From: Tridacna crocea
Lineage: Eukaryota; Mollusca; Bivalvia; Cardiida; Cardiidae
Assembly (NCBI GenBank): GCA_943736015.1
Contig: OX031065.1
Location: forward strand, 26,798,427 to 26,862,426
Direction of reading: 5' to 3'
DNA: 64,000 nucleotides
The notes under the pieces were generated by a model. That model searched no databases. It had not been told where the DNA came from and saw only the letters and a program-made list of their open reading frames with translations. Positions within the stretch are counted from its first letter, which is position 1. Each line of letters starts with the position of its first letter. The position numbers and the translations under genes are program-made. This document shows positions 413 to 63,405 of the stretch, one piece after another.

Positions 413-630
413 TAACCCTTTTTTTTAAACTACTTTTAGAAAAAGATTTTTGAAAACAATGTAGGAAAAGGAGAAAATGCTGGTAACCAGCATTTTCTCC
501 TTTTGTCCACAGTGTTTCTTCTATCTTGTCCAAGCCAATTTCCAGAATTTTATCCACAAGTAATTTGGTGTCTTTGCATTTTACCAGAGTTTGGCTGGGT
601 CAGAAGTTTTCTCATGTGGTAAAGGGTTGA
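413..630 (+). mobile_element. MITE-A copy, diverged left end
   Basis: The hairpin lies at about 455-525. The right end GGTAAAGGG abuts TTGA, a decayed TTAA, at 627-630, which also serves as the left flank of the next copy. Confidence 0.8.
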
Positions 631-854
631 CTCTTTACCACATGAGAAAATTTTAGACTGGTCCAAATTGAAAGCATTTGCAGACAACAAAATAAAGGTG
701 ACCGAAAATTTGAATTTGTTCTGAGAAGGGTAGAAAACACTTTGGGAAAAGGAGAAAATGCTGGTTACCAGCATTTTCTCCTTTTCCCACAGTGTTGTCA
801 AACCGCGTCTTTCTCAGGGGCGTCAAAAGTAGGAATTGTGTTGTAATGGGTCAA
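627..854 (-). mobile_element. MITE-A copy
   Basis: Full-length reverse copy with the CTGGTTACCAG centre that marks this strand. It shares its left target tetramer with the preceding copy, forming a head-on pair. Confidence 0.88.
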
Positions 855-1028
855 ACCTGTGCTTAGTAATCAGGTAGTCTTATAACTGACCATAGGAAAA
901 CAGATTTGGAAAACTTTGGTAATGCTATTCAATAGCCAGCCTTTTCTCACATTGTTTGCCTATGCATCTCAGTGGCACATCCTGTCATTTTAGCCATATA
1001 TATGTGCTTTGTTGTCTGCAACAAAGCT

Positions 1029-1252
1029 TTGACCATAATTATGATCCCAAGTTTGGATGACCCTGAAGAAGAGGGCATTGGAAAACATCGCAGGAAAAGG
1101 AGGAAATGCTGGTAACCAGCATTTTCTCCTTTTCCCGCAATGTTTTCTATCCTATCACTAAACAATTGCACTGTTTGAGCCATTGAAATTGTCCTCTGCA
1201 AATGCTCTCAGTTTGTACGAGGCTAAAATTTTGTCATCTGGTAAAGGGTTGT
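1029..1252 (+). mobile_element. MITE-A copy
   Basis: Full-length but older copy. TTGA at 1029 and GGTAAAGGGTT at 1241 mark the ends, and the right half has the CCATTGAAATTG variant. Confidence 0.82.
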
Positions 1253-1363
1253 AATGGTAAACTTGAATTGTAAAGGCTTGATCAGACTGGCAAACTGATA
1301 TGTAGAGGAGGGCAACAGACAAAAACAGGCGGATCTGGTGACAAAATTAATCTCCTACGCCAC

Positions 1364-1590
1364 TTAACTCTTTACCAGACGACAAAATCTTGGACTGGTC
1401 CGAATTCAAAGCATTTTCAGATGACATTATAAATATGGCTCCAAAATTGAAACTTGTTTCGGGAAGGGTAGAAAATATTGTTGGAAAAGAGAAATGCTAG
1501 TTACCAGCATTTTCTCCTTTTCATACAATGTTTTCAAAAGACTTCTTTCTCAGGGTCATTAAAAGTCGGGATTGTGTGGTAAAGAGTTGG
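1364..1590 (-). mobile_element. MITE-A copy
   Basis: TTAACTCTTTACCA at the left and GGTAAAGAGTT at the right. A few bases are missing from the left hairpin arm near 1485. Confidence 0.87.
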
Positions 1591-2132
1591 CTCATGCAAT
1601 TGATGTGTGGAGTGAAGAAGCCACAATGAATGCATGAGCGCAACACATGTATAAAAAAACATGCATGTTTACCGGATATGTTCCGGATAATAAATAGTCT
1701 ATTATAAACATACGATCCATGGAAATGTACCGAACACCAAAGTAGGAGGAAGGTATCAGTCACATGACATGTCGAGGGTAAAACTAGGTGCATCCGAAGT
1801 CTTGTCATTTACACGTCTCTGTCCGTTTTGTCTGGTGGACATTTTTTAACATGCTCAAAACTTCCCACTGGATGGGATGAACTTCAACAGATGTCATGGG
1901 ACTAGTAGCAGATTCATCTGATAAGAAACGGATATAAAACGTATATGAAAGGACACTAACGGATAAAATGATTTTTTATCCGTTACTCATCTGTTAGCTA
2001 GGTGTGACCAAATCTTAAGTTCTTCACTAAACAACAACATGAATGACTTCTCAATGATTAACCTAAAGCATTGGCATCATGAGGAATTCAATGAGGTCCA
2101 AATATTAGAAATTATCAATGAATAATTAGTCC
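1591..2132. other. Non-repetitive DNA with a small hairpin
   Basis: No gene is seen. A 12-bp perfect stem with a 5-nt loop, TAACGGATAAAA paired with TTTTATCCGTTA, lies at 1957-1985. Its role is unknown. Confidence 0.4.
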
Positions 2133-2181
2133 ACATTGCAAGGAAAAAAGAGAAAATGCTGGCAACCAGCATTTTCTCCTT
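2133..2181. mobile_element. MITE-A hairpin fragment
   Basis: Only the palindromic core is left. It joins abruptly to the TATACCCC-type repeat at about 2182. Confidence 0.7.
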
Positions 2182-2300
2182 ATACCCCATCAAAGCGAAT
2201 GTTTTCGGGGGGTATACTGGAATCAGCCTGTCTGTCTCTGTGTCTGTCAGGTTGTCCGTCTGTGTACAAAATACTGAAGTAATTGCCTGTTTCTGTCAAA
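2182..2300 (+). repeat. GGGGGTATA / CTGTCTGTC dispersed repeat
   Basis: A GGGGGGTATACTGG start is followed by a run of CTGTCTGTCTC and TTGTCCGTCTGTG, as in the related copies near 22655 and 25085 (reverse). The class is not known to me. Confidence 0.5.
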
Positions 2301-2365
2301 GCGCTGGCTGGGGTATTAAGTCACATTCAGTGACAGCTCTAGTTTCTCCTCTGGGATGTTAGGGT

Positions 2366-2612
2366 CCTGTGTGGGTCAGTGGTAAAGTGTAGAATCACTC
2401 TGACCTGGAGGCCCCAAGTGCAAGCCACACTGAATTTAATGAGTGTTGTCGGAGTGTCCTTGGGAAAGACACTTCAAAGTCCCAGCCTATTACTAGTGAA
2501 ACCCAGGAAATACGTGAACATGTAAGCTGTCACCTTATATGACTGAAATAATGTTGATAGGTAATGTTGATAGCGGCCTAAAACACTATTCAATCAATCA
2601 CTCAATCACTTT
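2366..2612 (+). mobile_element. tRNA-derived SINE, group 1
   Basis: The head carries an A-box-like GGGTCAGTGGTAAAGTG and a weakened B box. The body has GGAGTGTCCTTGGGAAAGAC, and the tail ends in CAATCAATCACTCAATCAC. The body aligns along its length with the copy at 55371-55599. No clear target duplication was found. Confidence 0.75.
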
Positions 2613-3273
2613 TCTCTCATGTTAAAACAGGAGATTATTCGGTAAGGAAAAAGAGAAGATTATTTGGTTATGATGAAACATGCGATATTTGAAAAATAAA
2701 TGAAAAATTGTTTCAGATGGGATTTGTTAATTAAAAAAAAAAATGAAAAATGCTCATAATATGTTTTCCCAATTTTGTCACATGATTTTCTCAGGTTGTC
2801 TGTTAAAGAACATTTAGATTTTGGAGTCAAGACTTAATAGGGTTTAAAGAAACAAGAAAAAAAAAGATCCAAAGTGGGAAAGATGTTTGGGCTTATAAAT
2901 GGGGAGTAATTATAAGAATAATTGAAGAAAGATAGTTTTAGAAGAATTAATGTGGCATAAGTTAGATTGAAGGATTTTTCCCTTTGAAATGAAAAGCCTG
3001 AGCAATTCAATTTAAATCGTAATAGGTTTAATATCGTCAGGTTTTAATGACCTTTTGAATTATTCATGTCAGCAAATTAGGAGATTGGTCGGTCCTCTTT
3101 TTTTTTATTTCAAAAAGAAGAAAAGCGATCAGGGAATATTTTTGAAGTGATTTGATTGAAAACAAATTCATGCTATTGAAATTAATTCTAGAATAATTAG
3201 TTTTCTTGTTATTACTGTCACACAGGTTTAAGGAGAGTATGGAAAAGCAGCCATTGCTATATTTTTTGTTTGA
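2613..3273. other. Non-repetitive AT-rich DNA
   Basis: About 660 bp without a recognised repeat or coding frame. It contains several TAATT motifs (for example near 3193), so a conserved non-coding element is possible but unproven. Confidence 0.35.
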
Positions 3274-3422
3274 TTAGTAACCAGCATTTTCACCTTTTTC
3301 CACAACTTTTTCTATCCTGCTTGAAACAAATTTCAAATTTTGAGTTGCACTAATGTTATTTTGTTGTCAGCAATTGCATTCAATTTATTACGGTCTAAAA
3401 TTTTGTTGCTTGGTAGAGTTAA
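3274..3422 (+). mobile_element. MITE-A copy, 5'-truncated
   Basis: It begins within the hairpin's right arm and runs to GGTAGAGTTAA. The TTAA at 3419-3422 is shared with the next copy. Confidence 0.82.
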
Positions 3423-3625
3423 CTCATTACCAGACGACATAAATATTTTAGACTAGTCCAAATCAAAAGCATTTGTAGATGACAAGATAAAAGTGACTGT
3501 AAACATTGTGGGAAATTTAAAGGAGAAAATGCTGGTTACTAGCATTTTCTCCTTTTCCCACAATGTTTTCAAAAGGCTTCTTTTCCAGATGCGTCAAAAG
3601 TAGGGATTGTGTGGTAATGGGTTAA
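3419..3625 (-). mobile_element. MITE-A copy, internally shortened
   Basis: Has the CTCATTACC / GGTAATGGG type of ends. About 25 bp between the AAGTGACTG motif and the hairpin are missing. Confidence 0.86.
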
Positions 3626-3798
3626 AGGGTAAGGTATTAAAAACATGTAGCAATATATCCAAGTTAAACTTTTGATTGCAGAAAAAGAATGATCCATCTT
3701 CATTATGATTATCATTTAAAAAAAAAGTTGTAAAATATTTAATATTGATCAAACTGTAAATCTGCTTTTAAAAACACTTATGTCATACATTTAACCTC

Positions 3799-4027
3799 TT
3801 AACTCTTTACCAAACAACATAATTTTAGACTGATCAAAATTGGAAGTATATTCAGATGACAAAATTAATGTGACTCAAAAGTTGAAATTTGGTTTGGGAA
3901 GGATAGAAAACATTGTGGGAAAAGGAGAAAATGCTGGTTACCAGCATTTTCTCCTTTTCCCACAATGTTTTCTATAGGCTTCTTTCTCAGGGTTGTCAAA
4001 AGTAGGGATTGTGTGGTAATGGGTTAA
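3799..4027 (-). mobile_element. MITE-A copy, well preserved
   Basis: TTAA at both ends (3799-3802, 4024-4027). The hairpin is at about 3908-3974 with a GGTTACC centre. Confidence 0.92.
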
Positions 4028-4032
4028 GCCTT

Positions 4033-4250
4033 TTGACCCACTACCACCCAGTGAGGACCCTGAGAAAGAAGACTGTTGAAAAATTTGTGAAAAAGGATAA
4101 AATGCAGGTTGCCAGCATCTTCTCCTTTTACCACAAAGTTTTCTACCTTTAACAAAACAAACTTCACATTTTCAGTCACTTTTATTTTGTTTTCTGCAAA
4201 TGCTTTTGATTTGGACAAGCCTAAAATATTGTTGTTTGGTAATGAGTCAA
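4033..4250 (+). mobile_element. MITE-A copy, diverged
   Basis: TTGACCCACTACCA at the left and GGTAATGAGTCAA at the right. The hairpin centre has changed to GGTTGCC. It lies only six bases from the previous copy. Confidence 0.82.
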
Positions 4251-4275
4251 ATAAATCTAGTTTTCACAATCCTTA

Positions 4276-4395
4276 AAAAGAATGTTACGAAAACATTGTG
4301 AGGAAGGAGAAAATATTTTTTCTCCTTTTACATTTATCAAGCAGTCCTGAATCTTGATGACCTGAATAAAGAAAACTTTTGAAACATTTGGAAGA
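4276..4395. mobile_element. MITE-A fragments
   Basis: A shortened hairpin lacking the CTGGT centre (4283-4340) is followed by a left-end piece, GATGACCTGAATAAAG. Confidence 0.6.
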
Positions 4396-4404
4396 AAACA
4401 AGAC

Positions 4405-4462
4405 AGTATTGATCAATGATCAGACTTCATGTTTTATATAGTCTGATCTAATTTACACTGGC
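4405..4462. mobile_element. MITE-C palindrome
   Basis: GATCAGACTTCATG pairs with TAGTCTGATC around a short loop. This is a diverged core of the GATCAGACTGCA family. Confidence 0.65.
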
Positions 4463-6402: not shown

Positions 6403-6631
6403 TTAATCCATTACCACACAATCCCTACTTTTGACGTCCCTGAGAAAGAAGCCTTTAGAAAACATTGTGGGAAAAGGAGAAAATGCTGGTAACCAGCATT
6501 TTGTCCTTTTCCCACAATGTTTGCTACCCTTCACAAAACAAATTTCAAATTTTCAGTCACTTTTTTTTTGTCATCTGCAAACGCTGTCAATTTGGACAAG
6601 TCTATAATATTGTCGTTTGGTAATGAGTTAA
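6403..6631 (+). mobile_element. MITE-A copy, well preserved
   Basis: TTAA at 6403-6406 and 6628-6631. Ends are CCATTACCAC and GGTAATGAG. One arm base differs (ATTTTGTCC instead of ATTTTCTCC). Confidence 0.92.
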
Positions 6632-8492: not shown

Positions 8493-8757
8493 CTTAATTA
8501 CCTGATACATGTGACTGTGAAGTTGAAAGTGGGATTTCTTTTTCAATCTTTATGGAAAAATTGTGTAGAAAGGAGACTTGACTCAGGTGTTATACCATTT
8601 AGTAATGTAGTCAACTTACATGCTGACTTAATTACCTGATACATGTGACTGTGAAGTTGAAAGTAGGATTTCTTTTTCAATCTTTATGGAAAAATTGTGT
8701 AGAAAGGAGACTTGACTCAGGTGTTACATCATTTAGTAATGTAGTCAACTTACATGC
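8493..8757 (+). repeat. Tandem duplication, 134-bp unit, two copies
   Basis: The unit starting CTTAATTACCTGATACATG at 8493 is repeated at 8627 with only a few differences. The next MITE-A copy starts right where the second unit ends. Confidence 0.93.
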
Positions 8758-9313: not shown

Positions 9314-9542
9314 TTAACCCTTTACCACACAATGATGACTTTTGATGACCCTGAGGTAGAAGCCTCTTTAAAACATTGTGGGAAAAGGAGCAAATGCTGG
9401 TGAACGGCATTTTCTCCTTTTCCCAAGATGTTTTCTACCCTTACCAAATCAAATTTTGATTCGTCAGCCACATTTATTTTGTCTTCTGAAAATGCTTTCA
9501 ATTTGGACCAATGTATAAATTTGTCATTTGGTAAAGAGTTAA
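9314..9542 (+). mobile_element. MITE-A copy
   Basis: TTAA at both ends. The centre reads GGTGAACGG, so the innermost pairing is disturbed. Confidence 0.9.
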
Positions 9543-10927: not shown

Positions 10928-11024
10928 ACAGTGGCCATGCAAATGGACAGAAGACTCCTACTATCAAAATGGAATAGATGACTCACAGCATTGACTCTTT
11001 CAAGTTCTGTGAAGGGGGCTAGGA
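10928..11024 (+). promoter_or_regulatory. 5' leader in the first coding exon, with short uORFs
   Basis: If the acceptor at 10926-10927 is used, 97 nt of leader precede the start codon. It holds ATGs at 10937 (14 codons, stop 10979-10981), 10969 (two codons) and 10978 (14 codons, stop 11020-11022). The last stop falls two bases before the main ATG. A TGA in the main frame at 11010-11012 shows that translation cannot enter from an upstream exon in this frame. Confidence 0.55.
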
Positions 11025-14000
11025 ATGGCCCTTGAATCATCCAGCCCCTATGGGGTTGGGGAGTCAGCCCTGTCATCAGGGAAAACAATGTTTCCCGATT
11101 CAGAGACTATAGAAAAGTTTACATATCCATTCAAAAGCAGTGGTAATTTTACATCAGTTTTCAACAGTACATCGCTGTCCAATGCAGTATTAAATACAAG
11201 CGTAGGCCATTCCACTCATGCTGAAAGCAAACAATCTGAAAAGAAATCTTCACCTTTGTCATCTAGAATCCCTGAAAATATCACAAATGAGAGCCCAATG
11301 GAAGTGGATGATGCTAAACCAGACAGTCATGAAATGGCAAAACTGGGTATGACCACAAACAGTGAAGTAGAACCGGAAAAAGAGACAGACAGAAAAGTTG
11401 AGGAATTATCTGATAATGAAGATCTTGTTGAATGTGGGAACTGTGACAATGAGTTTCAATGCTTACAAGACTATATGGACCATACTTGTGCTGGTAACAA
11501 AAGTATAGATGGTCGTAAAAATGAAGCGGCAACAGGTAACAGTGCCATGGTCAGTGTGAAAGATTGCATACCTAGTGCAAATGCTGAGGGAAAAGATGAA
11601 CTCAGTGATGTAGAAAGTTTTGATGGTAAGATAGTATACAATCCTGATGGATCTGCGTATATCATTGAAGGAGACTCTGATAGTGACATTGAATCCATCA
11701 TCGATCTCCCTCAGAAAGAAGGGGTTATTATTGATAGAAAAGGAAAAACTGATGAACCCTCTACACAGCCTTTTCCTCTTATTGACAATGCATTTTTTGT
11801 GCCCAGAAATCCAAGCTCTTTTATGAACAATAATTTTGTAATGCCCCAACAACAAACTCCAATAATGCACAGTTACCGTGTATATGATCTGCGATCAGGA
11901 AAGCACAAATCTCAAAACTCAGGTGAAAGTGTACAGGACTGTAATAATTCCAGATTATCATCGTCATTGTTGTCATCTTCATCTAAAATAGATCCAGATT
12001 CATCTACCTCAGAAGCATTAACATCATCAAAAACATCAGCCTCACATGTACAGTCATCCAAAGTGACATCTGTCCCAACAAAGCCAATCCTCATGTGCTT
12101 TATATGTAAGCTTTCCTTTGGGTTTTCTAAGTCTTTCATTTCACATGCATCAAATGAACATTCAATGGCACTGACATCAAAAGAGCATGAAATCATGTCT
12201 CAGAAGAACTCTTCAGCTATTATTCAAGGTATTGGAAAGGACAAGGAACCTCTGATGTCATTTCTAGAGCCAATCAAATCTACTGGATGGGAATCTTCAT
12301 CTGATGCTGTTAAAAACCTTTCAAGTGATTTTGGATCAAATAAAGCTAGTGTACTGAAGGAGACAACAAGTGTAAGCTATGTATATACCAAGCCAAAACT
12401 ATCAGATTCATTTAAAGATTCAGGTTTTACACTTAGTCCTAAACATTCAAAAGATATTTCTGTGAAAGAGATGAAAGATAGGTTTGGTAAATATGATAGT
12501 GATAGCCCTTCAAGTTCACTTGGATTGAATTCTGTATCAAATAGGCCTAACATGTATGAGAACAGTACAAGTGAGATGCATGGCATCAATGAAATTCAAA
12601 AACTGAAACTAGATTTAAGTGACTCAGACTCTCAATCAAGCTTTTCTCTGAATCCAATGCAAAGATACATGACAGAGGATTTCAAATCCCAATCTCCTAA
12701 GCCATATTTGCCACCATTTCCATCCTCCCAGAGACAAGGGTTTTATGGTATGTGTGAAGAACATCCAAATGGTAGAGCCCAGGGTGTAGAATGCCCAAGT
12801 TGTGACATGGTATTAAGTTCTTCACAGTCACTTGGAGGTCACATGACAATGATGCATTCGAGAAACTCATGTAAGACACTAAAATGCCCAAAATGTAACT
12901 GGCACTATAAATACCAGGAGACTTTAGAAATACACATGAAGGAAAAACATCCAGAAGGGGACCAAAAATGCATGTATTGTTTGACTAATCAACCCCATCC
13001 TCGTCTAGCCCGTGGGGAAAGTTACTCTTGTGGCTATAAGCCTTATAGATGTGAAGTCTGTAACTATTCTACAACAACAAAAGGCAATCTGAGTATACAC
13101 ATGCAGTCAGACAAACACCTGAACAATGTACAAGACTTGGCACAGGGAAATGGAGATATCTCAGTCCAGAAACATCAGGTAACTGCTGCCCAACAAATGT
13201 CTCAACCACCTACACCAACCCTTCCAGCCCCTTCACCAGCCCCATCCTCCAAAACTCCACCCCACCAGCATCTTGTCCAGCAACATCAGAACTCAGTCCC
13301 ACACCCACACCAGAGTTCCCACTCCCAACAGCATGTTCCACAGCCACATCCCAGTAACTCACAGGATCTCATGAAAAAGAATAAGCCTAAACCAACCTGG
13401 AGATGTGATGTGTGTAATTATGAAACTAATGTAGCAAGAAATCTACGCATTCACATGACAAGTGAAAAACATACGCACAACATGATGGTACTACAGCAGA
13501 ATATGAAACACATGCAGAGAGATATGCAGCTTCATCAGATGAACCAGCTGGTCATGTTACAACAAGATCCTTCATTTATGGGTCTGTCTGGACCAATACC
13601 TGGAGGGATTACTTTTCCATATGATGGATCTTTGATGATGGGGGGTATGCCACCAGGGTTTGGAGAGGCACCCATGGATCTTAGTAAAGAAAATGGTGTT
13701 GGAGTAGGCCCTGATGGGATGCTAGAGTTACAAGATGTTAACAGATTGTTCCAGTGTTGTGTCTGCAATGTTTTTGGTACAGATTCACTAGAATCTTTGC
13801 ATCAACACTTGCAGTTAGATCGTACAAAATTACATGAGCATGAAAATATCACAGTATCCAGTGGGACATATATATGCAACCTCTGCCAATACAAGACTAA
13901 CTTGAAGGCAAATTTTCAGCTTCACTGCAAGACAGACAAGCATATACAGCGTCTACAACTTGTAAATCACATCAAAGAAGGAGGCACCAACAATGAATGG

Positions 14001-14385
14001 CGTCTAAAATACCTCAATGTAAGTAACCCTGTTCAGGTGCGCTGCAATGCATGTGACTACTACACAAATAGCATCCACAAATTACAAATCCACACAGGAA
14101 ATCCTCGGCATGAAGCTAGTGCTCAGCTTTTCTGTCACCTTCAATCACAGGACAGCAAGATGTCACCAACAAGTGGCAAGTACTACCAGTGCACATTGTG
14201 CAAGTTCAATGCCCGGTCAAAACTTGGACTGATGCAGCATGTTCACTCCATGCAACACCTACACAGTGAAAGTTTGAAGCAGATGGAAATGAAGGAAGCT
14301 GGACAGCTAGAGATTGATATTGGTGACATCTTTACAGTTAGAGAGGAGGAGGATGATAAAAGCACAGTCAAGTATGATGAGGAAG
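11025..14385 (+). CDS. ZFHX3/4: ZFHX3/ZFHX4-like zinc-finger homeobox protein, first coding exon (N-terminal ~1120 residues)
   Basis: Nuclear transcription factor of the ATBF1/zfh2 family, which in animals acts in neuronal and muscle differentiation. Visible C2H2 fingers include an atypical CxxC...HxC at residues 137-155, then 358-379, 590-611, 621-642, 676-698, 794-816, an atypical one at ~911-928, and 951-973, 1007-1029 and 1056-1078. Family signatures are IVYNPDGSAYIIE (203), YRVYDLR (284), SAIIQGIGKDKEPL (397), GGHMTMMHSRNSCKTLKC (604) and LARGESYSCGYKPYRCEVC (661). Residues ~723-778 are rich in Pro, Gln, His and Ser. The ATG has G at -3 and +4, and an in-frame stop lies at 11010. The end is set by the donor AAG|GTAAGAG at 14386 (phase 1), where similarity stops being expected. 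The frame stays open to 14621, but that tail is read as intron. Homeodomains, several per protein in this family, lie in exons not found here, so this is a partial gene. MITE copies are absent from the exon. Confidence 0.93.
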
Positions 14386-14391
14386 GTAAGA
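14386..14391 (+). other. Splice donor of the ZFHX exon
   Basis: GTAAGA after GAAG matches the metazoan donor consensus closely. It splits codon 1121 after its first base. The intron that follows shows no further exon to the window end. Confidence 0.75.
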
Positions 14392-14544
14392 GCACTTTGC
14401 ATGATGTACTTAAGTATAGTGAGAGTCCCATGTTTAGCTTTGTCCTTGCGAACTCAAGAAATTCATTCTTTTTTTGGATGGTCAAGAAAGCGATTTTTAG
14501 AGCTGCTGGAAATGAACTGAGCCAAGGTTTTGCATCTGGAAGCA

Positions 14545-14606
14545 GATGGTGTAGATTTAAGATCAGACTGCATGTTCTGTACAGTCTGATCTTGATCTAC
14601 ACCATC
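14545..14606. mobile_element. MITE-C palindrome inside the read-through ORF
   Basis: GATGGTGTAGAT pairs with ATCTACACCATC, and GATCAGACTGCATG with GTACAGTCTGATC. It supplies some of the codons of the false 3' extension of the zinc-finger ORF. Confidence 0.85.
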
Positions 14607-14682
14607 TTCAAAAGGCAATAAAATGATTATTTGAATGTATCATTCTGGAATTTCTTGAAAAAAAAAACACCACATCATCATT

Positions 14683-15206: not shown

Positions 15207-15337
15207 CCATATAATTCAAAGATTTAATCACACAAAGAGCAACAGCTTTCGAAAACATTGCTGAATATGTGGAAAATGCTGACGACCACAATTGTTGTTC
15301 AATGCCAATGTCACCTCACATAACTTTTACAAAGGGC

Positions 15338-15392
15338 ATAGATCAAGGATCAGACTGCATGTTTGTGCTGTCTGATCTTTGATCTATACCAT
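15338..15392. mobile_element. MITE-C palindrome
   Basis: ATAGATCAAGGATCAGAC pairs with GTCTGATCTTTGATCTAT across a GTGC-containing loop. Confidence 0.8.
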
Positions 15393-17371: not shown

Positions 17372-17550
17372 TTAACTCTTTACTACACGACAAAAGTTTG
17401 GACAAGACCAAAGTGAAAACATAATTATGCAGACAACAAATCAGTGCTAAATCAAGATAATGATCTTTGTCTTTGAAAGAGTAAAAAACATTGTTGGAAA
17501 AGGAGAAAGAGTTGGTAACCAGCATTCACGTTTTCCAACAAGAATATTGT
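17372..17550 (-). mobile_element. MITE-A copy, 3'-truncated
   Basis: TTAACTCTTTACTACACGAC start. The hairpin's right arm is shortened to CATTCACGTTTTCC and the right third is missing. Confidence 0.72.
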
Positions 17551-17553
17551 TGG

Positions 17554-17618
17554 TTTACTTCAAAAACCTCGTAACTACAGCTTATAATAAGCTGTAGTTA
17601 CAAGGTTTTCGAAGTAAA
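17554..17618. repeat. Unrelated 32-bp-arm palindrome
   Basis: TTTACTTCAAAAACCTCGTA and its near-perfect complement flank a single A at 17586, with two mismatches in 32 pairs. It shares no sequence with the MITE-A, -B or -C hairpins. Confidence 0.8.
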
Positions 17619-17636
17619 TTGATGATATTCAGTATT

Positions 17637-22940: not shown

Positions 22941-23400
22941 TTTGTACAGGGAGACAACACAACTACAACAACAATTCAAAAGAAACATCAGAACTAATAT
23001 ACATCTGTGTGGGTTGTCTCTTTTGTAAGACCAAAAAATGTTGGAATCATCCGTATCTAAATTCAAGTATTTGCAAATGCAATGTAGATCAGAGCTCCAG
23101 ATAAGAGGGAGTGATAGTATTCTACATCCTTTTAATAATTTCTTGTCAAAACCCTATGTTGTGGGTACTCATTAGAATCGTCTCATTGAGACGATTCTAA
23201 TGAGTACCCACAACATAGGGTTTAGGGGAGAATAATTCATATTTTCAATTTTGAAATCAAAATCACTCCCTTTATCTGGAGCTCTGTAGATGATTCCAAC
23301 ACTTTTTTGGTCATACAAAAGAGACAACCCACATAGATGTATATTAGTTCTGATATTTCTCTTGTATTGTTGTTGTAGTTGTTGTCTCCCGCACAACACT
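22941..23400. repeat. Inverted pair of LR repeats with perfect palindrome centre
   Basis: A reverse LR unit (from GGGAGACAACACAACTAC) mirrors a forward one ending near GTTGTTGTCTCCC. The junction is a perfect 37-bp-arm palindrome at 23149-23223 centred on T 23186. GAGCTCCAGATAA at ~23091 is mirrored at ~23272. Confidence 0.88.
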
Positions 23401-34590: not shown

Positions 34591-34819
34591 TTAACCCATT
34601 ACCACTCAATCCCTACTTTTGACGCCCCTGAGAAAGAAGCCTTTTGAAAACACTGTTGGAAAAGGAGAAAATGCTGGTAACCAGCATTTTCTCCTTTTCC
34701 TACAGTGTTTTCTACCCTTCCAAGAACAAATTTCTATTTTTCAGTCACCTTTATTTTGTCGTCTGCAAATGCTTTTAATTTGGACCAGACCAAAATTTTC
34801 TCGTGTGGTAATGGGTTAA
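34591..34819 (+). mobile_element. MITE-A copy, CCCATTACC-type
   Basis: TTAACCCATTACCACTC to GTGGTAATGGGTTAA. It shares the TTAA at 34816-34819 with the next copy. Confidence 0.93.
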
Positions 34820-35052
34820 CCCTTTACCAGTCACAATAACAACTTTTAACGACCCTAAGGAAGAAGCCTTTTGAAAACTTTGTGAGAAAAGGAGAAAATG
34901 CTGGTAACCAGCAATTTCTACTTTTCCCACAAAGTTTTCTATTTTATCAACAACAAAAAAAAAATGCATCATTTGAGCCACTACGAAATTATCATCTGTA
35001 AATACTTTCAAGGTGGGTAGGTCTAAAATTCTGCTGTGTGGTAAAGTGTTAA
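34816..35052 (+). mobile_element. MITE-A copy
   Basis: TTAACCCTTTACCAGTC to TGTGGTAAAGTGTTAA. The right spacer has the CCACTACGAAATTATC form. Confidence 0.9.
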
Positions 35053-35841: not shown

Positions 35842-36073
35842 TTAACCCTTTACCAGACAATCCCGACTTTTAACGACCCTGAGAAAGAAGCCTTTTGAAA
35901 AGTTAGTGGAAAAGGGAGAAAATGCTGGTAACCTGAGCATTTTCTCCTTTTCCCACAATATTTTCTACCCGTCACAAAACAAATGTTTAATATTCAATCA
36001 CTTTTATTTTGTCGTCTGCAAATGCTTTCAATTTAGACCAGTCTGAAAATTTGTCGTAAAGTAAATGGGTTAA
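35842..36073 (+). mobile_element. MITE-A copy
   Basis: TTAACCCTTTACCAGAC to GTAAATGGGTTAA. The centre is GGTAACCTGAGC. Confidence 0.9.
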
Positions 36074-36297
36074 CCCATTACCACTCAATCCCTACTTTTG
36101 ACGCCCCTGAGAAAGAAGCCATTTTAAAACACTGTGGGAAAAGGAGAAAATGCTGGTAACCAGCATTTTCTCCTTTTCCCAAAGTGTTTTCTACCCTTCC
36201 CAGAAAAAAATTCTATTTCTGATCACCTTTATTTTGTCGTCTGCAAATGCTTTCAGTTTGGACCAGTCCAAAATTTTCTCATGTGGTAATGAGTTAA
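36070..36297 (+). mobile_element. MITE-A copy, CCCATTACC-type
   Basis: Shares TTAA 36070-36073 with the previous copy. Ends at GTGGTAATGAGTTAA. Confidence 0.93.
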
Positions 36298-38411: not shown

Positions 38412-38856
38412 GTAACTCTTTACCACACGATCCAGACTTTTAACAGTTCATCCCATCAGGCATTTCTGTAGTATCTCTAATTGACCCTAAATAACAGCAA
38501 GGATATGAAGTATGTGTATATGACACCTTTTGATAGCATAGAAAACATTGTGACAAAAGGTGAAATTGATCGTCACAAGCAATTTCACCTTTTGCCACAA
38601 TGATTTCCAAAGGCACCCACAAGCAGTGCGTACTAATAAGTGTCTATGGAGTAAAGGGTAAAGGACCCTGAGAAAGAAGCATACAGAAAACGTGGGAAAA
38701 GGAGAGAATGCTGGTAACCAGCATTTTTTTACTTTTCCCACAATAATTTCTACCTAATCAGTCAGAAATCATAATATTAACAAGATTTGATTTGTTTTCT
38801 GCAGATGTTTTGAATTTGTTCCAGTCCAAAAAATTGTCATTTGGTAAAGAGTTTAA
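38412..38856 (+). mobile_element. MITE-A host copy interrupted by MITE-B
   Basis: ACTCTTTACCACACGATCC runs to ACTTTTAAC, breaks, and resumes after 38662 with GGACCCTGAGAAAGAAGC, the hairpin and TTTGGTAAAGAGTTTAA. Confidence 0.87.
38440..38662 (+). mobile_element. MITE-B copy nested in MITE-A
   Basis: TTAA, then a decayed CCCATCAGGCATTTC end, hairpin at ~38538-38604 (GAAATTGATCGT / ACAAGCAATTTC) and TATGGAGTAAAGGG. The insertion site is the TTAA in the host's ACTTTTAACGACC motif. Confidence 0.85.
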
Positions 38857-47507: not shown

Positions 47508-47736
47508 TTAACCCTTTACCCCATAAGGCATTTCTTTGGCATCTCTAATTGACCCAAAATGACAGCAAGGATGAAGCCATTTCTTATGTGCAAATGACAC
47601 CTTTTGATAGCACAGAAAACATTGTGACAAAAGGTGAAATTGCTCGTTACGAGCAATTTCACCTTTTGCCACAATGTTTTCCAAAGGCTCCTACAAGCAA
47701 TGTGTAGAAATGAGTATCTATGGAGTAAAGGGTTGA
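47508..47736 (+). mobile_element. MITE-B reference copy
   Basis: Length is 229 bp. TTAA, CCCTTTACCCCATAAGGC end, hairpin arms 47615-47647 and 47649-47681 (33 bp each, one mismatch, one-base centre), TATGGAGTAAAGGG end and decayed TTGA. The outer arm, GAAAACATTGTG, is shared with MITE-A; the inner arm, GAAATTGCTCGT, is not. Confidence 0.9.
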
Positions 47737-51756: not shown

Positions 51757-51798
51757 TTAACCCTTTACCAAACAGCCCAGTGCTTTGCACCCCTTTAA
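51757..51798 (+). mobile_element. MITE-A left-end fragment
   Basis: TTAACCCTTTACCAAACAG, cut by the next copy's TTAA. Confidence 0.75.
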
Positions 51799-52023
51799 CC
51801 CTTTCCCAAACAATCCCTGGTTTTTACGGGTCAGGAATAGAAGCCTTTTGAAAACATTGTGGGAAAAGGAGAAAATGCTGGTAACCAGCATTTTCTCCTT
51901 TTCACACAATGTCTTCTACCCTATCATATAGAAAAATCATCTTTTTAGCAGCTGTTAGTTTGTCATCTGCAAAATGCTTTCAATTTGGTCTGGTCCAAAA
52001 TTTGCCGTTTGGGAAAGGGTTAA
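51795..52023 (+). mobile_element. MITE-A copy with matched CCC/GGG end change
   Basis: TTAACCCTTTCCCAAAC to GTTTGGGAAAGGGTTAA. The TTTCCCA end is mirrored by TGGGAAA. Confidence 0.92.
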
Positions 52024-55305: not shown

Positions 55306-55306
55306 A

Positions 55307-57800: not shown

Positions 57801-57827
57801 GTTTTAAGTTTTAGGTTTTACCCCTTT

Positions 57828-58247
57828 ACCACACAATCCCACCTTTGAACGACTGGGAAAAATTGAATTTTTTCAAACATTGTGGTGGCCAACATTTCCT
57901 CCTTTTCCCACAATGTTTTCCACCTAATCCATGGTAAATTTCTGATTTTCACTTAACATTTATTTTGTTGTTTTAACCCTTTCCTCTATAGATACTCATT
58001 TCTATGCATTGCTTGTAGGAGCCTTTGGAAAACATTGTGGCAAAAGGTGAAATTGCTCGTGACAAGCAATTTCACCTTTGGCCTCAATGTTTTCTATGCT
58101 ATCAGAAGGTGCCATATACACATAAGAAACTTGCTGTTATTTAGGGTCAATTAGAGATACCATAGAAATGCCTTATGGAGTAAAGGGTTAAGAGAAATAC
58201 CTTTCAATTTGAAGTAGTCTAAAATTTTGTCATTTGGTTAAGATTCT
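57828..58247 (+). mobile_element. MITE-A host copy interrupted by MITE-B
   Basis: CCCCTTTACCACACAATCCC, a reduced left arm, then ATTTATTTTGTTGT. It resumes after 58191 with CTTTCAATTTGAAGTAGTC and TTTGGTTAAGATT. Confidence 0.82.
57973..58191 (-). mobile_element. MITE-B copy nested in MITE-A, reverse
   Basis: TTAACCCTTTCCTCTATAG to TATGGAGTAAAGGGTTAA, TTAA at both ends. Hairpin GAAATTGCTCGTGACAAGC at ~58049. Confidence 0.9.
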
Positions 58248-58641: not shown

Positions 58642-58705
58642 GTCTAATCCCAAATGAAAGCATTTGCAAATGACATTATGCACCTTAAATAAGCGGGTAT
58701 GTCTT

Positions 58706-58934: not shown

Positions 58935-58936
58935 AG

Positions 58937-59052: not shown

Positions 59053-59290
59053 TGGTTTATAAATACATCAGTGTGTATAAGTCTAGAATTTTGTTGTTTG
59101 GTGAAGGGTAATACTCTAAATTTTATCTGAATGACTGAGTGTAAAATGTCATATTTATTTTTATGGTGAAATATAGATAATAAGTTGTTATTGCAAAAAA
59201 TTTTATGCTCCAGATTTTACCATAGAAACGGTTTCAGGTTCATGATAAGATTTCGTGATTAACCGATTTCCATGGATAATTGACTTAATA

Positions 59291-59506
59291 TTAATGCCAA
59301 ATTTTTGGACTTGCCCAAATTCAAAGCATTTCCAGAGGATAAAATAAATGCAGCTCAAGTCATGATTTGAGTCTTTGTTAGAGTAGAAAAGATGGTGGGA
59401 AAAAGAGAAAATGCTGGATACCTGCATTTTCTTCTTTTTCCAAAATATGACAAAAGCCTTCTTCTTCATGGTCATTGTAACTCAGGATTTTGTGGGAAAG
59501 GGTTAA
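59291..59506 (-). mobile_element. MITE-A copy, first of a chain of four
   Basis: TTAATGCCAAATTTTTGG lacks part of the terminal repeat. The right end is GTGGGAAAGGGTTAA. Confidence 0.85.
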
Positions 59507-59730
59507 ACCTTTACTAAACAATCCCTGGTTTTTACGACTCAGAGAAAGAAGCTTTCTGAAAACATTGTGGGAAAAGGAGAAAATGCTGGTAACCAGCATT
59601 TTCTCCTTTTCCCACAATGTTTTCTACTCTTCCGAAGTAAAGTTTCAATTTTATAGTGACCTTACTTTGTCACCTGCTAATGCTTTCAATTTGGAACAGT
59701 CTAATATTTTATTGTTTGGTAAAGGGTTCT
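59503..59730 (+). mobile_element. MITE-A copy, second of the chain
   Basis: TTAAACCTTTACTAAAC to TTTGGTAAAGGGTTC, perfect hairpin. Confidence 0.91.
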
Positions 59731-59924
59731 TTACCTGGGACACAACACAACCTCAGATTTTGTGAAGTTTGGCAATTTGTATGTGACTCGGTAATAGTGG
59801 CTCACTTGAAAGGATAGAAAGCACTGAGGGAAAAAGAGGACAATGCTGGTTACCTTTCCTGCTTCAACAATGTTTTCTGAAGTTTTATGTCGTCAAAACA
59901 CCTGATTGTATGGTAAAGGGTTAA
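59727..59924 (-). mobile_element. MITE-A copy, third of the chain, diverged
   Basis: TTCTTTACCTGGGACAC to ATGGTAAAGGGTTAA. The right arm is heavily shortened. Confidence 0.8.
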
Positions 59925-60154
59925 CTCTTTTCCAAACCACATAGTTTTAGACTAGACTAGTCCAAATTGGAAGCATCTGCAAACGACAAAATTAGGGCAA
60001 CTGGAAAATTGAAACTTGGTTTGGGTAGGGTAAAAAATATTGTTGGAAAAGGAGAAAATGCTGGTTACCAGCATTTTCTCCTTTTCCCACAGTGTTTTCT
60101 GTATGCTTTTTTCCCAGGGTCGTTAAAAGTCGGGATTGTGTGGTAAAGGCTTAA
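59921..60154 (-). mobile_element. MITE-A copy, fourth of the chain
   Basis: TTAACTCTTTTCCAAAC to GTGGTAAAGGCTTAA. A five-base ACTAG duplication lies near 59953. Confidence 0.9.
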
Positions 60155-60640
60155 GCACAATTTTGCAAAAGGAATTTTGTTTATTATCCCACCGTTTTTC
60201 CTGCAGGCTTGCATGTTTCGGACAAATGTCATGTTCTCTGGGTTATAAATAAGTGAAAACAATGCAATCAAAGGATGTGAAACAAAATGTATATTTTTAT
60301 TGTGTGTCAACCCACAGCTAGATCTCCCAATTATTATGTTACGATGAAAATAATTACCAAACAACAGATTTTTAAACTGGTCCAAATTGAAAGCATTTTG
60401 TAGATGACAAAAAGCAGCTTCCAGAAAGGTAGCACAAAAGCTTAGCTTCAGAAAGGGCTGCAAATGAAATCAGAATATGTTTTCTGCTCTTACCATAGTT
60501 ATAATACACCATATAATGTAAAAAAAGTTATAAATGCATTCACCAAAATTTGTAAATTGTACTTTTTCTAAACCCACAAAGCACCAAGTAACCTCAGCGG
60601 ACATTCTCGGAGTCTGGAACTAAAGACCCAGATAATTACT
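60155..60640. other. Mostly non-repetitive DNA with a MITE-A left-end scrap
   Basis: TTACCAAACAACAGATTTTT to GTAGATGACAAAAAGCAGC (60355-60425) is the only repeat seen. Confidence 0.45.
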
Positions 60641-60861
60641 TTAACTCTTTACCTGAGATGACAAAATTTTAGACTGGTCCAAATTGAAAGCAGTTTTAGA
60701 CAACAAAAGAAATGTACATCAAAAATTAAAATTTGTTTCCAGCAGGGTAGAAAACATTGTGGAAAAGGGCATTACCAGCATTTTCTTCTTTTCCCACATT
60801 TTTTTCCAAAGGCTTCTATCTCAGAAATGTAAAAACCAGGAATTGTATGGTAAAGGGTTAA
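60641..60861 (-). mobile_element. MITE-A copy missing part of the left arm
   Basis: TTAACTCTTTACCTGAG to ATGGTAAAGGGTTAA. GTGGAAAAGGGC joins directly to ATTACCAGC. Confidence 0.88.
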
Positions 60862-61040
60862 CTCTTTATCAAATGACAATTTTAGACTAAGTCCAAATTG
60901 AAAGCATTTGCAGAGGACAAAATAAAAGTGACTGAAAATTTGAATGTTGGTTTTGGAAGATTTTTAAAGAAAGCATTGTGGGAAAAGGAGAAAATGCTGG
61001 TTATCACACAGCATTATAAATGCTCAAAGGTTTTCAGAAT
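60858..61040 (-). mobile_element. MITE-A copy, right end lost
   Basis: Shares TTAA 60858-60861. TTAACTCTTTATCAAATG to a scrambled right arm after GGTTATCACACAGC. Confidence 0.83.
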
Positions 61041-61066
61041 CGGATTATTGCATCTTTTTTTGTCCA

Positions 61067-61288
61067 TTAACCCATTACCACACAATCCCTACTTTTGATG
61101 ACCCTTAGATAGAAGCCTTTAGAAAACATTGTGGGAAAAGGAGAAAATGCTGGTAACCAGCATTTTCTCCTTTTTCCACAATGTTTTCTACCCTTCACAA
61201 AACAAATTTTAAATTTTCAGTCACTTTTATTTTGCCGTCTGCAAATGCTTCAATTTGGACAAACCAATAATGTTTGGTAATGAGTTAA
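61067..61288 (+). mobile_element. MITE-A copy
   Basis: TTAACCCATTACCACAC to TGTTTGGTAATGAGTTAA, with a small deletion near ACAAACCAATAATG. Confidence 0.91.
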
Positions 61289-61449
61289 AAGAAGGATCTG
61301 CCATTACACAGTAGGCACATGATTCAGACATGGATATTAGTAATAGTATTCCTATTCAAATAAACTTGTGATGCTTTGTATGCATTTCTCTGTGGGATAC
61401 CACTGTTTAGCCCCGATATTGCTCAACACTATCACAGGTGGGTGTTTTT

Positions 61450-61510
61450 TTGGACAGTGAAGATCAAGATCAGATTGTACAGAAGATGCAGTCTGATCAT
61501 GGTTTTGTAT
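61450..61510. mobile_element. MITE-C palindrome
   Basis: GACAGTGAAGATCAAGATC and GATGCAGTCTGATCATGG. Confidence 0.7.
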
Positions 61511-61837
61511 TGTTTTTATCTTGTGAGTTACTATTGACCAAAAAATGTCTATAGAAATGCAATAAATTGGTGTTATGTTCTGACTGAAAGTGATGAATTC
61601 TTCCATTTTGTATACTTCATGAGACATACTGTTTTATGTGCTCTGGAATCAGACAGACTTTTAGTCCATCTTTTAGTTTGTTTGTCAGTTACAGACAACA
61701 CACTCATTTTATAATGGGTTAATAAATGTTACTAATGTTAATTAATGTTACTTAATAAAATGTAGATAGTGCACCAAATAAAAAATGGAAAAAAAAAACC
61801 CAACAACAACAGACAGTGCAGGTAGTTTGAATGAAAA
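61511..61837. other. AT-rich DNA
   Basis: Contains short repeats of AATGTTACT(T)AAT near 61725-61760. No gene was seen. Confidence 0.35.
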
Positions 61838-62110
61838 TTAACCTTTTACCTGAAGGTGAAATTATAGACATGACCAAATAAGCATTTGCAACAAAATCAG
61901 ATGAGCTATATGTAACACTTGATGGAACCTGTATTTAAGTCTTCAATACCATGCAGTCCCAAGTTTTAATGACCCTCAAGAAATCATTGTTAGAGAAGGA
62001 GAAAATTTTCTCCTTTCCTTTCCCAACAATGTTTTCTACCCCATGAAAGGCAGATTTCATGTTTTGAGTGGCATTTGATTTATCATCTGCAAATTAACTA
62101 CATTTTTGTT
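61838..62110. mobile_element. Two MITE-A fragments
   Basis: A reverse left end (TTAACCTTTTACCTGAAGG) is followed by a forward copy (CCATGCAGTCCCAAG to CATCTGCAAATTAAC) with a reduced hairpin, GGAGAAAATTTTCTCC. Confidence 0.65.
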
Positions 62111-62139
62111 GTTCTAGTTCAGTCAGTTACTATAGTATA

Positions 62140-62253
62140 AAACATTGCAGACAAAGGACCAAATACTGCTAATAAGCTTCCTATAATAATATTCCCAATA
62201 CGCTTTTTCTTGAAAGGTCATATAGACACCAGATTTGTTTAGTAGAAGGTTAA
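62140..62253 (-). mobile_element. MITE-A copy, left half missing, diverged
   Basis: AAAACATTGCAGACAAAGG to TTTAGTAGAAGGTTAA. Confidence 0.62.
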
Positions 62254-62463
62254 ATTTTACCAGACGACTTTTTTAGACTTGATCAGATTGAAAGACAAGA
62301 AAATAAAATTAATGTAGGTCATTTGATGATCACAGTGTTTGATAGGATGGAAAAAAATGTGGGAAAATGCTGTTTACCAGCATTTTCTCCTTTTTTCACA
62401 ATCTTTTCTAAAACCTTCTTTCTGAAAGTTATTAAAATTTAGGATTGTGTGGTAAAGGGTTGA
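62250..62463 (-). mobile_element. MITE-A copy, left arm shortened
   Basis: TTAAATTTTACCAGAC to GTGGTAAAGGGTTGA. Shares TTAA 62250-62253. Confidence 0.83.
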
Positions 62464-62856
62464 GCAACTTTTTTGTCCTTGTGTCAAATCTAAATTATAC
62501 GGCCCTGCGTCTAATACAGTAATTAAGAGCTATCAGTTGATATGTGTGTCGGAATTCCAACTTTCATTAAACTATGCAAGGGGAGTGTTGAATTTTTTGT
62601 CTCCGGGTTTTTCTGTTTCAAATTGAGGTAATTAAATCCGGTGGATTTCAATAGCAGTAATTTGCATACATCTCATTATGACCAGTTTTTGAAAGAGGGA
62701 AAAAAAACAACATTGAAATTTGAATCTTCAGTCATGTTATTTTTTTTGGTAAATGGTGTCATTATCTCCAGATTTTTAATTATAGAAAAGTGCTGTATCA
62801 CAAAATTCATGTCCTAGGGTAGCTTGAATTCTGTTCCTTGATCACCTGATAAGCCT
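62464..62856. other. Repeat-free island with octamer and TAATTA sites
   Basis: TAATTA at 62520 and 62629 and a perfect ATTTGCAT octamer at 62660-62667 lie within ~150 bp. Candidate POU/homeodomain enhancer; not shown to function. Confidence 0.35.
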
Positions 62857-62940
62857 GGGTCCATATTCACTTGAACCACTCTTAAGAACATTCCTAGTGT
62901 TGGGCTCCAGAATTGTCTAAATGTGTACATTGCAGGAGTT
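62857..62940. repeat. Long-palindrome repeat D, half copy
   Basis: CATATTCACTTGAACCACTC and CTTAAGAACATTCCTAGTG match the left end of the D family. The mirror half is absent. Confidence 0.5.
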
Positions 62941-62959
62941 CTGATTCAACACGTTTTTT

Positions 62960-63065
62960 TTCCCCCATTCAAAGACAAATCTTGTCACTCGAGTCCTGTG
63001 AAGTTTGTTGTTTGCAAGTACATTCAATGGGACAAGGCTAAAAATTTGTCATATGTTGAAGAATC
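62960..63065 (+). mobile_element. MITE-A right-half fragment
   Basis: TTTGTTGTTTGCAAGTACATT to TTTGTCATATGTTGAAG. Confidence 0.6.
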
Positions 63066-63069
63066 AAAT

Positions 63070-63282
63070 TTTTAACAAGCAACAAAATTTCAAACTTATT
63101 TAAACTGATAGCATTTGCAGACGACAAAATAAATATGGATGTGAAATCAAGATTTGTTTTGGGAAGCGTACATAAAGATTGTGGGAAAAGGAAAAAAGGC
63201 TGTTTTCTCCTTTTTCCACAGTGTTTTCAAATGCTTTCAACCTCAGAGCCATGAAAACCAGGGCTTATCTAAGAAAGGTTTA
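63070..63282 (-). mobile_element. MITE-A copy, centre deleted
   Basis: AACAAGCAACAAAATTTC, GCATTTGCAGACGACAAAAT, then GGAAAAAAGGCTG joining TTTTCTCC. The right end is decayed. Confidence 0.78.
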
Positions 63283-63405
63283 ACAACACTGAAGGTGAAG
63301 GCTTTTGAAAATATTTTGGGAAAAGGAGAAAATAACAGTGATTAGCAGTTTCTTCTTTTCCCACAACACATCCTACCCTATCAAACATACTTTGGCTTTT
63401 GAAGC
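63280..63405 (+). mobile_element. MITE-A fragment
   Basis: ACACTGAAGGTGAAGGC with a hairpin whose centre is GTGATTAGC. Confidence 0.62.

What the first reader, a model, noticed from the sequence alone, without database searches (positions are those of the whole stretch)
413..63405. About 100 hairpin-bearing TTAA elements (MITE-A) in one gene intron and its flank
Seen: copies of one ~228-bp element recur every few hundred bases on both strands, ending in CCC...GGG next to TTAA and built round a 33-bp-arm, 1-nt-centre palindrome. They cover very roughly a third of the window and are absent from the coding exon. Known: TTAA targets and CCC/GGG ends are typical of piggyBac. Inference: a highly successful non-autonomous piggyBac family. 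A long perfect hairpin at the centre is not a usual part of piggyBac MITEs, so it may be a distinctive feature of the family.
Basis: partly seen in the sequence, partly recalled or inferred. Interest (0 to 1): 0.8.

Follow-up and report, generated by a model that had tools for sequence, protein, structure and literature searches.

The report
Half-million palindrome-cored piggyBac mini-transposons
A short parasitic DNA element, apparently moved by piggyBac-type enzymes and carrying a near-perfect hairpin sequence, has multiplied to about half a million copies in this one-gigabase genome, and its hairpin has stayed largely symmetrical while the rest of the element changed.

Summary
The window carries about 95 copies of a ~229-bp TTAA element with a 67-bp palindrome (33-bp arms, 1-nt centre); hits cover 40-43% of the window and none of the ZFHX-like exon. 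It is genome-wide: 481,095 palindrome cores with at most 3 mismatches in 1.05 Gb, 0 in the reversed-pattern control; the window is twofold enriched.

The piggyBac reading is supported. Autonomous partners exist: PF13843 elements whose left ends share up to 38 bp with the MITE end, including a 7.2-kb lineage with five copies nearly identical over 4.1 kb.

New here: the palindrome is a shared module. MITE families A, B and C carry it at the same place. Between them it differs mostly by paired, complementary changes, although A and B flanks show no detectable similarity. At one base pair tested genome-wide, mirrored double mutations are 5.8 times expectation, a non-mirrored control 2.0 times.

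Closest precedent: coral CMITEs, piggyBac MITEs with a conserved, non-palindromic core. The palindrome's role is inferred, not shown. Host not identified.

The parts
413..63405 (.). Region with about 95 palindrome-cored piggyBac MITE copies on both strands
6403..6631 (+). Complete family-A element, 229 bp, TTAA at both ends, A-type ends (TCCATTACCA / CTCATTACCA); strand here and below: ACACAATCCC-bearing end first
3799..4027 (-). Complete family-A element, TTAA at both ends
9314..9542 (+). Complete family-A element, T-type ends (CCCTTTACCA / CTCTTTACCA), TTAA at both ends
36070..36297 (+). Complete family-A element; a 106-nt stretch holding its palindrome folds as single-stranded DNA to -33.4 kcal/mol (shuffle mean -9.5)
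36126..36190 (.). Hairpin of the 36070-36297 copy as folded
34591..35052 (+). Two complete family-A elements in tandem sharing one TTAA (34591-34819 and 34816-35052)
   Evidence: 20 of 141 MITE ends in the window share their TTAA with another inverted end
47508..47736 (-). Family-B element: different flanks, palindrome GGTGAAATTGCTCGT/ACGAGCAATTTCACC
57973..58191 (+). Family-B element, TTAA at both ends
38440..38662 (-). Family-B element, one end degraded
51795..52023 (+). Element with a family-C left flank and a family-A right flank (CCCTTTCCCA at both ends)
11013..14396 (+). Coding exon without any element, ZFHX3-like C2H2 zinc fingers (PF24056 E 4.9e-19)

Best explanation
These are non-autonomous piggyBac-superfamily transposons (MITEs), cut and pasted into TTAA sites in trans by several co-resident piggyBac transposases. 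Shown: TTAA borders, C[C/T]C ends, autonomous piggyBac elements with matching ends, about half a million copies, and very recent movement of one autonomous lineage. Also shown: the internal 67-bp palindrome is shared by at least three MITE families, lies 55 bp from one end and 104-107 bp from the other, and differs between families mostly by paired changes. Inferred: mobilisation of the MITEs by those transposases, and a cis-acting role of the palindrome that raises the element's success as a substrate, most likely as a hairpin/cruciform hinge or a symmetrical binding site in an element too short and stiff for its two ends to meet easily. Sources that keep it leave more copies, and replication template switching between the arms supplies the paired changes.
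For: Autonomous partners with matching ends. MITE ends match L050 (35/39 for the T-type consensus), L049 (32/39 for the A-type, tied with L050) and L074 (34/39 for family C), against medians of 17-19/39 over 17 piggyBac ends. In 96 MITE ends the TIR letter T/A at position 8 is linked to three subterminal sites (Fisher 6.5e-14, 3.4e-08, 4.1e-13; related copies, so not independent events). Copies: 481,095 cores, control 0; 44,529 family-B-type cores, control 0. Palindrome conserved across lineages: 0 of 67 versus 11 of 162 consensus differences between 37 T-type and 14 A-type copies. Divergence from consensus 3.9% inner, 8.3% outer, 11.7% TIR, 15.8% flanks in 113 flank-anchored copies, CpG sites excluded. 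A versus B: 4 paired complementary changes and 1 unpaired, chance about 1.5e-6, with flanks at z 0.6 and 1.0 yet equal lengths (55/67/107). Arms co-vary within copies: 28 complementary doubles against 11.8 in stratified permutations, n=115, 0 of 2000 permutations reach it. Genome-wide at one pair, mirrored doubles 82 versus 14.2 expected, non-mirrored 43 versus 21.5, p 5e-9.
Against: No autonomous element that I read carries the palindrome near its ends; cores found inside three of them lie in or look like inserted MITE copies (judged by eye), so the transposase itself does not seem to need it. Among the 9 mutually closest pairs of copies the inner palindrome is not clearly slower than the flanks (5.6% vs 8.4%, p 0.08; outer arms 8.8%); an earlier, non-independent binning of window pairs did show 2.8% inner versus 9.4% flanks in its closest 43 pairs, so the point is open. 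Paired changes can arise by template switching without selection. The other MITE end matches no autonomous end beyond the TIR (best 21/39), so its origin is unknown. Family B's partner is not found (best 26/39, L047 right end). L050's right end rests on its inverted repeat and on likeness to the second lineage (32 of 45), not on a second copy; L074 has stops in its transposase and no right end found. No transposition, excision or expression data.
Confidence: 0.62

Rival explanations
1. The palindrome is self-maintaining baggage: replication template switching between the arms keeps correcting one arm from the other, so it stays perfect without any function, and it was simply part of the first prolific MITE.
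For: Arms co-vary within single copies, with many different paired changes (19 kinds among 29). Template switching is reported to homogenise inverted-repeat arms and invert spacers (PMC8604942, passages) and to create compensatory changes (PMC8794818, abstract). Centre A->T is slightly over-represented (10 of 17 changes versus 339 of 944 in flanks, p 0.07). The closest pairs show no clear constraint after insertion.
Against: Template switching makes arms alike but does not hold them to the ancestral sequence; 29 and 28 of 33 positions of the two arms are the same in A and B while their flanks have no detectable similarity. Spacer inversion is rare: the centre is A in 111 of 128 family-A copies. 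The excess of mirrored doubles is small, about 54 loci against 3,234 single mutants at that pair.
Confidence: 0.25
2. The palindrome is a binding site for piggyBac cysteine-rich domains, which bind palindromes as dimers, and acts as an extra transposase-loading site in place of the subterminal repeats that the MITEs lost.
For: piggyBac and piggyBat transposases bind palindromes with their C-terminal CRDs (PMC11707139, passages). The L050 ORF ends in a Cys/His-rich segment (by eye). L050's left end has about four subterminal repeats, of which the MITE keeps one (by eye).
Against: The palindrome is far longer than the 12-19-bp palindromic sites described there and is not seen near the autonomous ends that I read. 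Paired A-T/T-A and G-C/C-G swaps alter the sequence such a site would need.
Confidence: 0.15
3. The hairpin acts as RNA: transcribed copies form 33-bp stems that feed small-RNA or editing pathways, and this selects for the palindrome.
For: Very strong fold (z -10.3, folded as DNA) and copies beside a coding exon.
Against: At four of the five sites with paired changes between family consensuses the change is a transversion pair swap that cannot pass through a G-U intermediate. No Rfam match in the window. No transcript data. The closest copies show no clear constraint after insertion.
Confidence: 0.07
4. Another TTAA-using superfamily (Kolobok, Sola3) drives the elements.
For: TTAA alone is shared by Kolobok T2-MITEs (PMC6004289, passages); for Sola3 recalled.
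Against: Ends are C[C/T]C, not the RR of Kolobok; autonomous elements with the same ends encode PF13843 transposases. Kolobok and Sola transposases were not searched for.
Confidence: 0.02

Closest known systems
CMITE families I-VI of Acropora corals (Wang et al. 2010, PMC2872659; parts 1-3 of 4 of the text read)
   Same: piggyBac-linked MITEs with TTAA duplications and CCC ends. Several families with different ends share a conserved internal region; one family shares its TIR with an isolated autonomous piggyBac; adjacent copies occur (as tandem arrays there, as shared TTAA here).
   Different: CMITEs are about 100 bp and about 1,600 copies in A. millepora (paper's estimate). Their 60-bp internal consensus has no long palindrome (longest perfect arm 5 bp) and no similarity to this one (p 0.50). 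Here the shared core is a 67-bp palindrome with paired changes and about 300 times more copies.
piggyBac superfamily autonomous transposons (piggyBac, piggyBat)
   Same: DDE_Tnp_1_7 transposase, TTAA target, CC[C/T]-type ends, subterminal repeats at one end
   Different: The autonomous elements found here are 6.4 and 7.2 kb, with an apparent intron (by eye); the MITEs lack coding sequence and carry the palindrome
Pokey MITEs (mPok1, mPok2) of Daphnia (PMC4912750, search listing only)
   Same: piggyBac-type MITEs beside autonomous copies (superfamily from the PMC3849761 listing)
   Different: rDNA-linked according to the listing; copy number and internal structure not compared here
T2-MITE of Xenopus (Kolobok; PMC6004289, passages)
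   Same: TTAA target, prevalent and long-lived MITE subfamilies
   Different: AGGRR ends and Kolobok transposase

Membership tests
piggyBac superfamily (non-autonomous member) | TTAA target site at both ends | tested here: met
   29 of 63 paired elements have exact TTAA at both ends, 53 of 63 at one or both; flanks differ right outside TTAA in autonomous copies
piggyBac superfamily (non-autonomous member) | CC[C/T]T-type terminal motif in inverted ends | tested here: inconclusive
   One end has C at its second base in 71 of 109 ends read; the other end is CTC[T/A] in consensus; third and fourth bases vary between T and A types. Autonomous L050 itself begins CTCT and L049 CCCA, so the motif is loose in this genome
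piggyBac superfamily (non-autonomous member) | Autonomous partner with matching ends encoding a PF13843 transposase | tested here: met
piggyBac superfamily (non-autonomous member) | Precise excision restoring one TTAA | not testable with these tools
   No relatives or second haplotype held
MITE | Short, uniform length, non-coding, inverted ends, high copy number | tested here: met
   Family A median 229 bp, IQR 227-229 over 132 copies; 481,095 cores
CMITE-like (piggyBac MITE families sharing an internal core) | Internal region more conserved between families than the ends | tested here: met
   A vs B: 57 of 66 palindrome positions equal (centre left out), flanks z 0.6 and 1.0; B rests on 9 copies
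CMITE-like (piggyBac MITE families sharing an internal core) | Same internal sequence as coral CMITEs | tested here: not met
   Local score 7.5, shuffle mean 7.6
Kolobok MITE (T2-type) | RR (AGG) termini next to TTAA | tested here: not met
   Termini are C[C/T]C

The most novel reading that the evidence does not exclude
A perfect palindrome is itself the heritable, selected module of a MITE superfamily. It has been carried, at fixed spacing, between MITE families served by different piggyBac transposase lineages, keeps its symmetry by paired changes, and is the cis feature that let these elements reach about half a million copies, roughly a tenth of a 1-Gb animal genome.
Probability: 0.35. Interest if true: 0.78.

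Novelty: new variant of a known kind. Interest (0 to 1): 0.62.

Why it matters
What makes some MITEs enormously successful is an old question, and the origin and role of the conserved internal region of the coral CMITEs were left open in 2010. Here is a second case, unrelated in core sequence, with autonomous partners, half a million copies, natural sequence variants and a physical hypothesis (hairpin or cruciform) that a simple transposition assay can test. The copy set is also a large natural record of how palindromes mutate and stay symmetrical. It bears on genome-engineering vectors, since piggyBac is widely used.

Tried and rejected
Kolobok as driver: rejected on termini and on the transposases found next to matching ends; Kolobok and Sola genes themselves were not searched. 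Chance palindromes: 0 in shuffles. Palindrome as part of the autonomous element: not found near the ends read. Other piggyBac lineages (L014-L019 TTAACCCTTTATATAC, L020/L035 TTAACCCTTTCAGTGC, L021/L022/L030/L032 TTAACCC[T/A][T/A]GTCATGC, L048, L051) were compared and rejected as partners because they do not match the MITE ends beyond the tip.

Profiles built from families B and C drifted to family A through the shared palindrome (discarded, redone with flanks only). One search's classification into A/B/C failed because the centre was offset; only its palindrome totals are used. The first arm test did not control for copy age and was replaced. A claim that the palindrome is constrained after insertion was dropped: the 9 mutually closest pairs do not show it clearly, although a cruder binning did. 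Frequent spacer inversion was not supported. The exact core gave 0 matches in viral and prokaryote contigs. Rfam: no match.

Rows dropped: loci L039-L046 (chosen by the palindrome) and duplicates, 19 of the 30 loci L009-L038 and 6 others (L052, L057-L059, L061, L062), mostly near-identical to loci kept, loci L017, L018, L022-L037, L052, L057-L059, L061, 11 of 62 copies of mixed or other end type, loci L039-L046 and copies with 200 or fewer aligned positions (132 to 113), and for the pairs those with flank distance outside 0.005-0.25, loci L039-L046 (132 to 115). Only exact duplicates were removed from the copy set, so a few MITEs inside related piggyBac copies count more than once. In one search only 46 of 82 double mutants were printed with letters; 28 of 46 was counted by hand, as was the single-mutant spectrum from the 100 rows.
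Full report
OBSERVATION. The window (contig C10, 26,798,427-26,862,426 of a 1.05-Gb assembly in 31 contigs) is densely packed with copies of one element. A fuzzy search for the 39-bp palindrome core gave 94 hits, none in three shuffles. Iterated nhmmer gave a 229-bp consensus running from TTAACTCTTTACCA to TGGTAAAGGGTTAA. The palindrome occupies consensus 108-174, with 33-bp arms and a 1-nt centre. Hits cover 40-43% of the window depending on the round, 0% of the coding exon and 45% of the rest. The exon has ZFHX3-like zinc fingers. Of 63 elements with both flanks recognisable, 35 are plus and 28 minus; 29 have exact TTAA at both ends and 53 at one or both. Of 141 ends, 20 share their TTAA with a neighbouring copy, consistent with copies inserting into TTAA at the ends of earlier ones.

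GENOME-WIDE. The 31-bp core with up to 3 mismatches occurs 481,095 times, its reversed control 0 times; 183,553 are exact. At 229 bp each this would be about 10.5% of the genome (an estimate that assumes full length and leaves out more diverged copies). The window holds 59 such cores, 2.0 times the genome mean. CCCTTTACCA occurs 146,823 times against 3,090 for the control.

AUTONOMOUS PARTNERS. A PF13843 search found 118 matches; I looked at the 30 loci returned and at longer stretches for eight places, so most matches were not examined. Three lineages carry MITE-like ends. (1) L050: inverted ends TTAACTCTTTCCCACACA 6,376 bp apart, about four subterminal repeats of the type AACAATCCCGACTTTTAACGACCC, and a 481-aa ORF with a full PF13843 domain; nearest solved structures are piggyBat and piggyBac. 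Of 40 scored matches to its left end, 28 cover the first 38-39 bp at 97-100%; the 8 of these that I read (L063-L065, L067-L071) run straight into the MITE palindrome. Only one full-length copy was seen. (2) The L049/L025-L029 lineage: left end TTAACCCATTACCG, right end TTAACTCATTACCA, about 7.2 kb. Five copies on C3, C5, C9, C10 and C15 differ by 1-3 mismatches and 0-17 gap positions over 4.1 kb, so it moved very recently. Outside TTAA the copies differ on the left, and on the right in the two compared, C5 and C9. The copies read carry MITEs inside. (3) L074: left end TTAACCCTTTCCCAAACAAGCCC, upstream of a PF13843 match with two stops; no right end found. Right ends of (1) and (2) agree at 32 of 45 positions. 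The other piggyBac lineages whose ends I read begin with CCC but do not match the MITEs further.

END LINEAGES. In 96 MITE ends followed by the palindrome, the T or A at TIR position 8 is tightly linked to three subterminal positions, and the two haplotypes resemble lineages (1) and (2), though the A-type consensus scores equally against both (32/39). TIR letters at the two ends of one element agree in 30 of the 34 window pairs with T or A at both ends (40 pairs in all). The T-type (37 copies) and A-type (14 copies) consensuses differ at 11 of 162 flank positions and 0 of 67 palindrome positions.

THE PALINDROME AS A SHARED MODULE. Some palindromes have another sequence, GGTGAAATTGCTCGT, matched on the other arm. 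They lie in a second family, B, with ends TTAACCCTTTACTCCATAG and TTAACCCTTTACCCCATAAGG; 44,529 such cores with up to 2 mismatches occur genome-wide, 0 in the control. A third family, C, has ends CCCTTTCCCAAACAAGCCC (like L074) and a GGAGAAATTGCTCGT-type arm. Paired elements found in all DNA held: 132 A, 9 B, 5 C, 3 mixed. Consensus palindromes: A versus B, four sites changed on both arms in complementary fashion plus one unpaired; A versus C, three sites changed on both arms, two complementary and one not; B versus C, three complementary and two unpaired. The chance of the A-B pattern with random placement is about 1.5e-6. Away from the TIRs (and, on the short side, the 10 bp next to the palindrome, 8 of which agree) A and B flanks are no more alike than shuffles (z 0.6 and 1.0), yet lengths are the same, 55 + 67 + 107; family C is 55 + 67 + 104 and its flanks are related to A (z 4.1 and 10.9). 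B and C rest on few copies.

HOW THE PALINDROME EVOLVES. In copies found by their flanks, the inner palindrome differs from consensus at 3.9%, outer arms 8.3%, TIRs 11.7% and flanks 15.8%, CpG sites excluded (113 copies). Between the 9 mutually closest pairs the difference shrinks (5.6% inner, 8.8% outer, 8.4% flanks; p 0.08), which suggests that mutation after insertion is ordinary and that conservation acts on the lineages that keep transposing. A cruder binning of window pairs gave 2.8% inner against 9.4% flanks for its closest 43, non-independent, pairs, so this is not settled. Within copies, mutations in one arm are mirrored in the other: 46 double changes against 23.6, and 28 complementary against 11.8, in permutations matched for arm divergence (n=115). 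Genome-wide at one pair: 183,553 exact, 1,602 and 1,632 single, 82 double (14.2 expected); a non-mirrored pair gave 43 against 21.5. Of 46 readable mirrored doubles 28 are complementary, against 39% expected from the single-mutant spectrum (p 0.002). Template switching between arms, reported in other systems, can supply such pairs. It would also flip the centre; in family A the centre is A in 111 of 128 and T in 10, a weak excess of T (p 0.07).

MECHANISM. Shown: MITEs with the ends of several resident piggyBac lineages, one of them recently mobile. Inferred: these transposases move them, and the palindrome helps the MITE as a substrate. The fixed spacing, the survival of the palindrome when flanks change, and its absence from the autonomous ends that I read point to a MITE-specific cis role. 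A 229-bp DNA is stiff; a palindrome that extrudes or bends would let the ends meet. A binding site for the palindrome-binding CRDs of piggyBac transposases (PMC11707139, passages) is possible, but the palindrome is far longer than those sites. Self-maintenance without function is the main rival.

LITERATURE. Searches of the open-access library turned up one close precedent, the coral CMITEs (parts 1-3 of 4 read). Like these, they are piggyBac MITE families with different ends and a conserved core, whose origin and role were left open. Their core is not a long palindrome and is unrelated in sequence. I found no report of the present family in those searches' listings; repeat databases such as Repbase or Dfam could not be searched, so the family may be catalogued there. 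A survey of bivalve transposons (PMC10294476, passages) reports abundant, unclassified MITEs.

VERDICT. The piggyBac assignment is near certain (about 0.97). The finding is a new variant of a known kind: CMITE-like piggyBac MITEs with a palindromic shared core and extreme copy number.

Noticed in passing
17542-17630: A different palindrome (44-nt arms, 84% complementary, 1-nt centre) with relatives of its core in L011 and L048: another MITE-like repeat not related to MITE-A.
   Followed up: partly
23165-23207: A perfect 20-bp-arm palindrome GTACTCATTAGAATCGTCTC with a relative in L045: a further unrelated palindromic repeat.
   Followed up: no
14540-14620 and 15335-15392: Two copies of an inverted-repeat element around GATCAGACTG...CAGTCTGATC or similar, distinct from MITE-A (read).
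   Followed up: no
8493-8757: Tandem duplication of a 134-bp unit, 97% matches, ending just where a truncated MITE-A copy begins.
   Followed up: no
2330-2600: Repeat-like stretch with GTGTCCTTGGGAAAGACACTTCAAAG, resembling invertebrate SINE-type repeats (recalled, not tested).
   Followed up: no
L014-L019 (C10, C18, C3, C4, C12): A second recently mobile piggyBac lineage with TTAACCCTTTATATAC ends, about 2.77 kb, copies 98.8-99.9% identical, whose ends do not match MITE-A.
   Followed up: partly
G000:C8:50.4 Mb, C8:56.7 Mb, C13:4.5 Mb: Clusters of degraded PF13843 matches within short distances, i.e. piggyBac relic clusters.
   Followed up: no
L053 (C13:4480068): Deletion derivative of the L050-type element: its first 72 bp are joined to sequence just upstream of the transposase gene.
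   Followed up: partly
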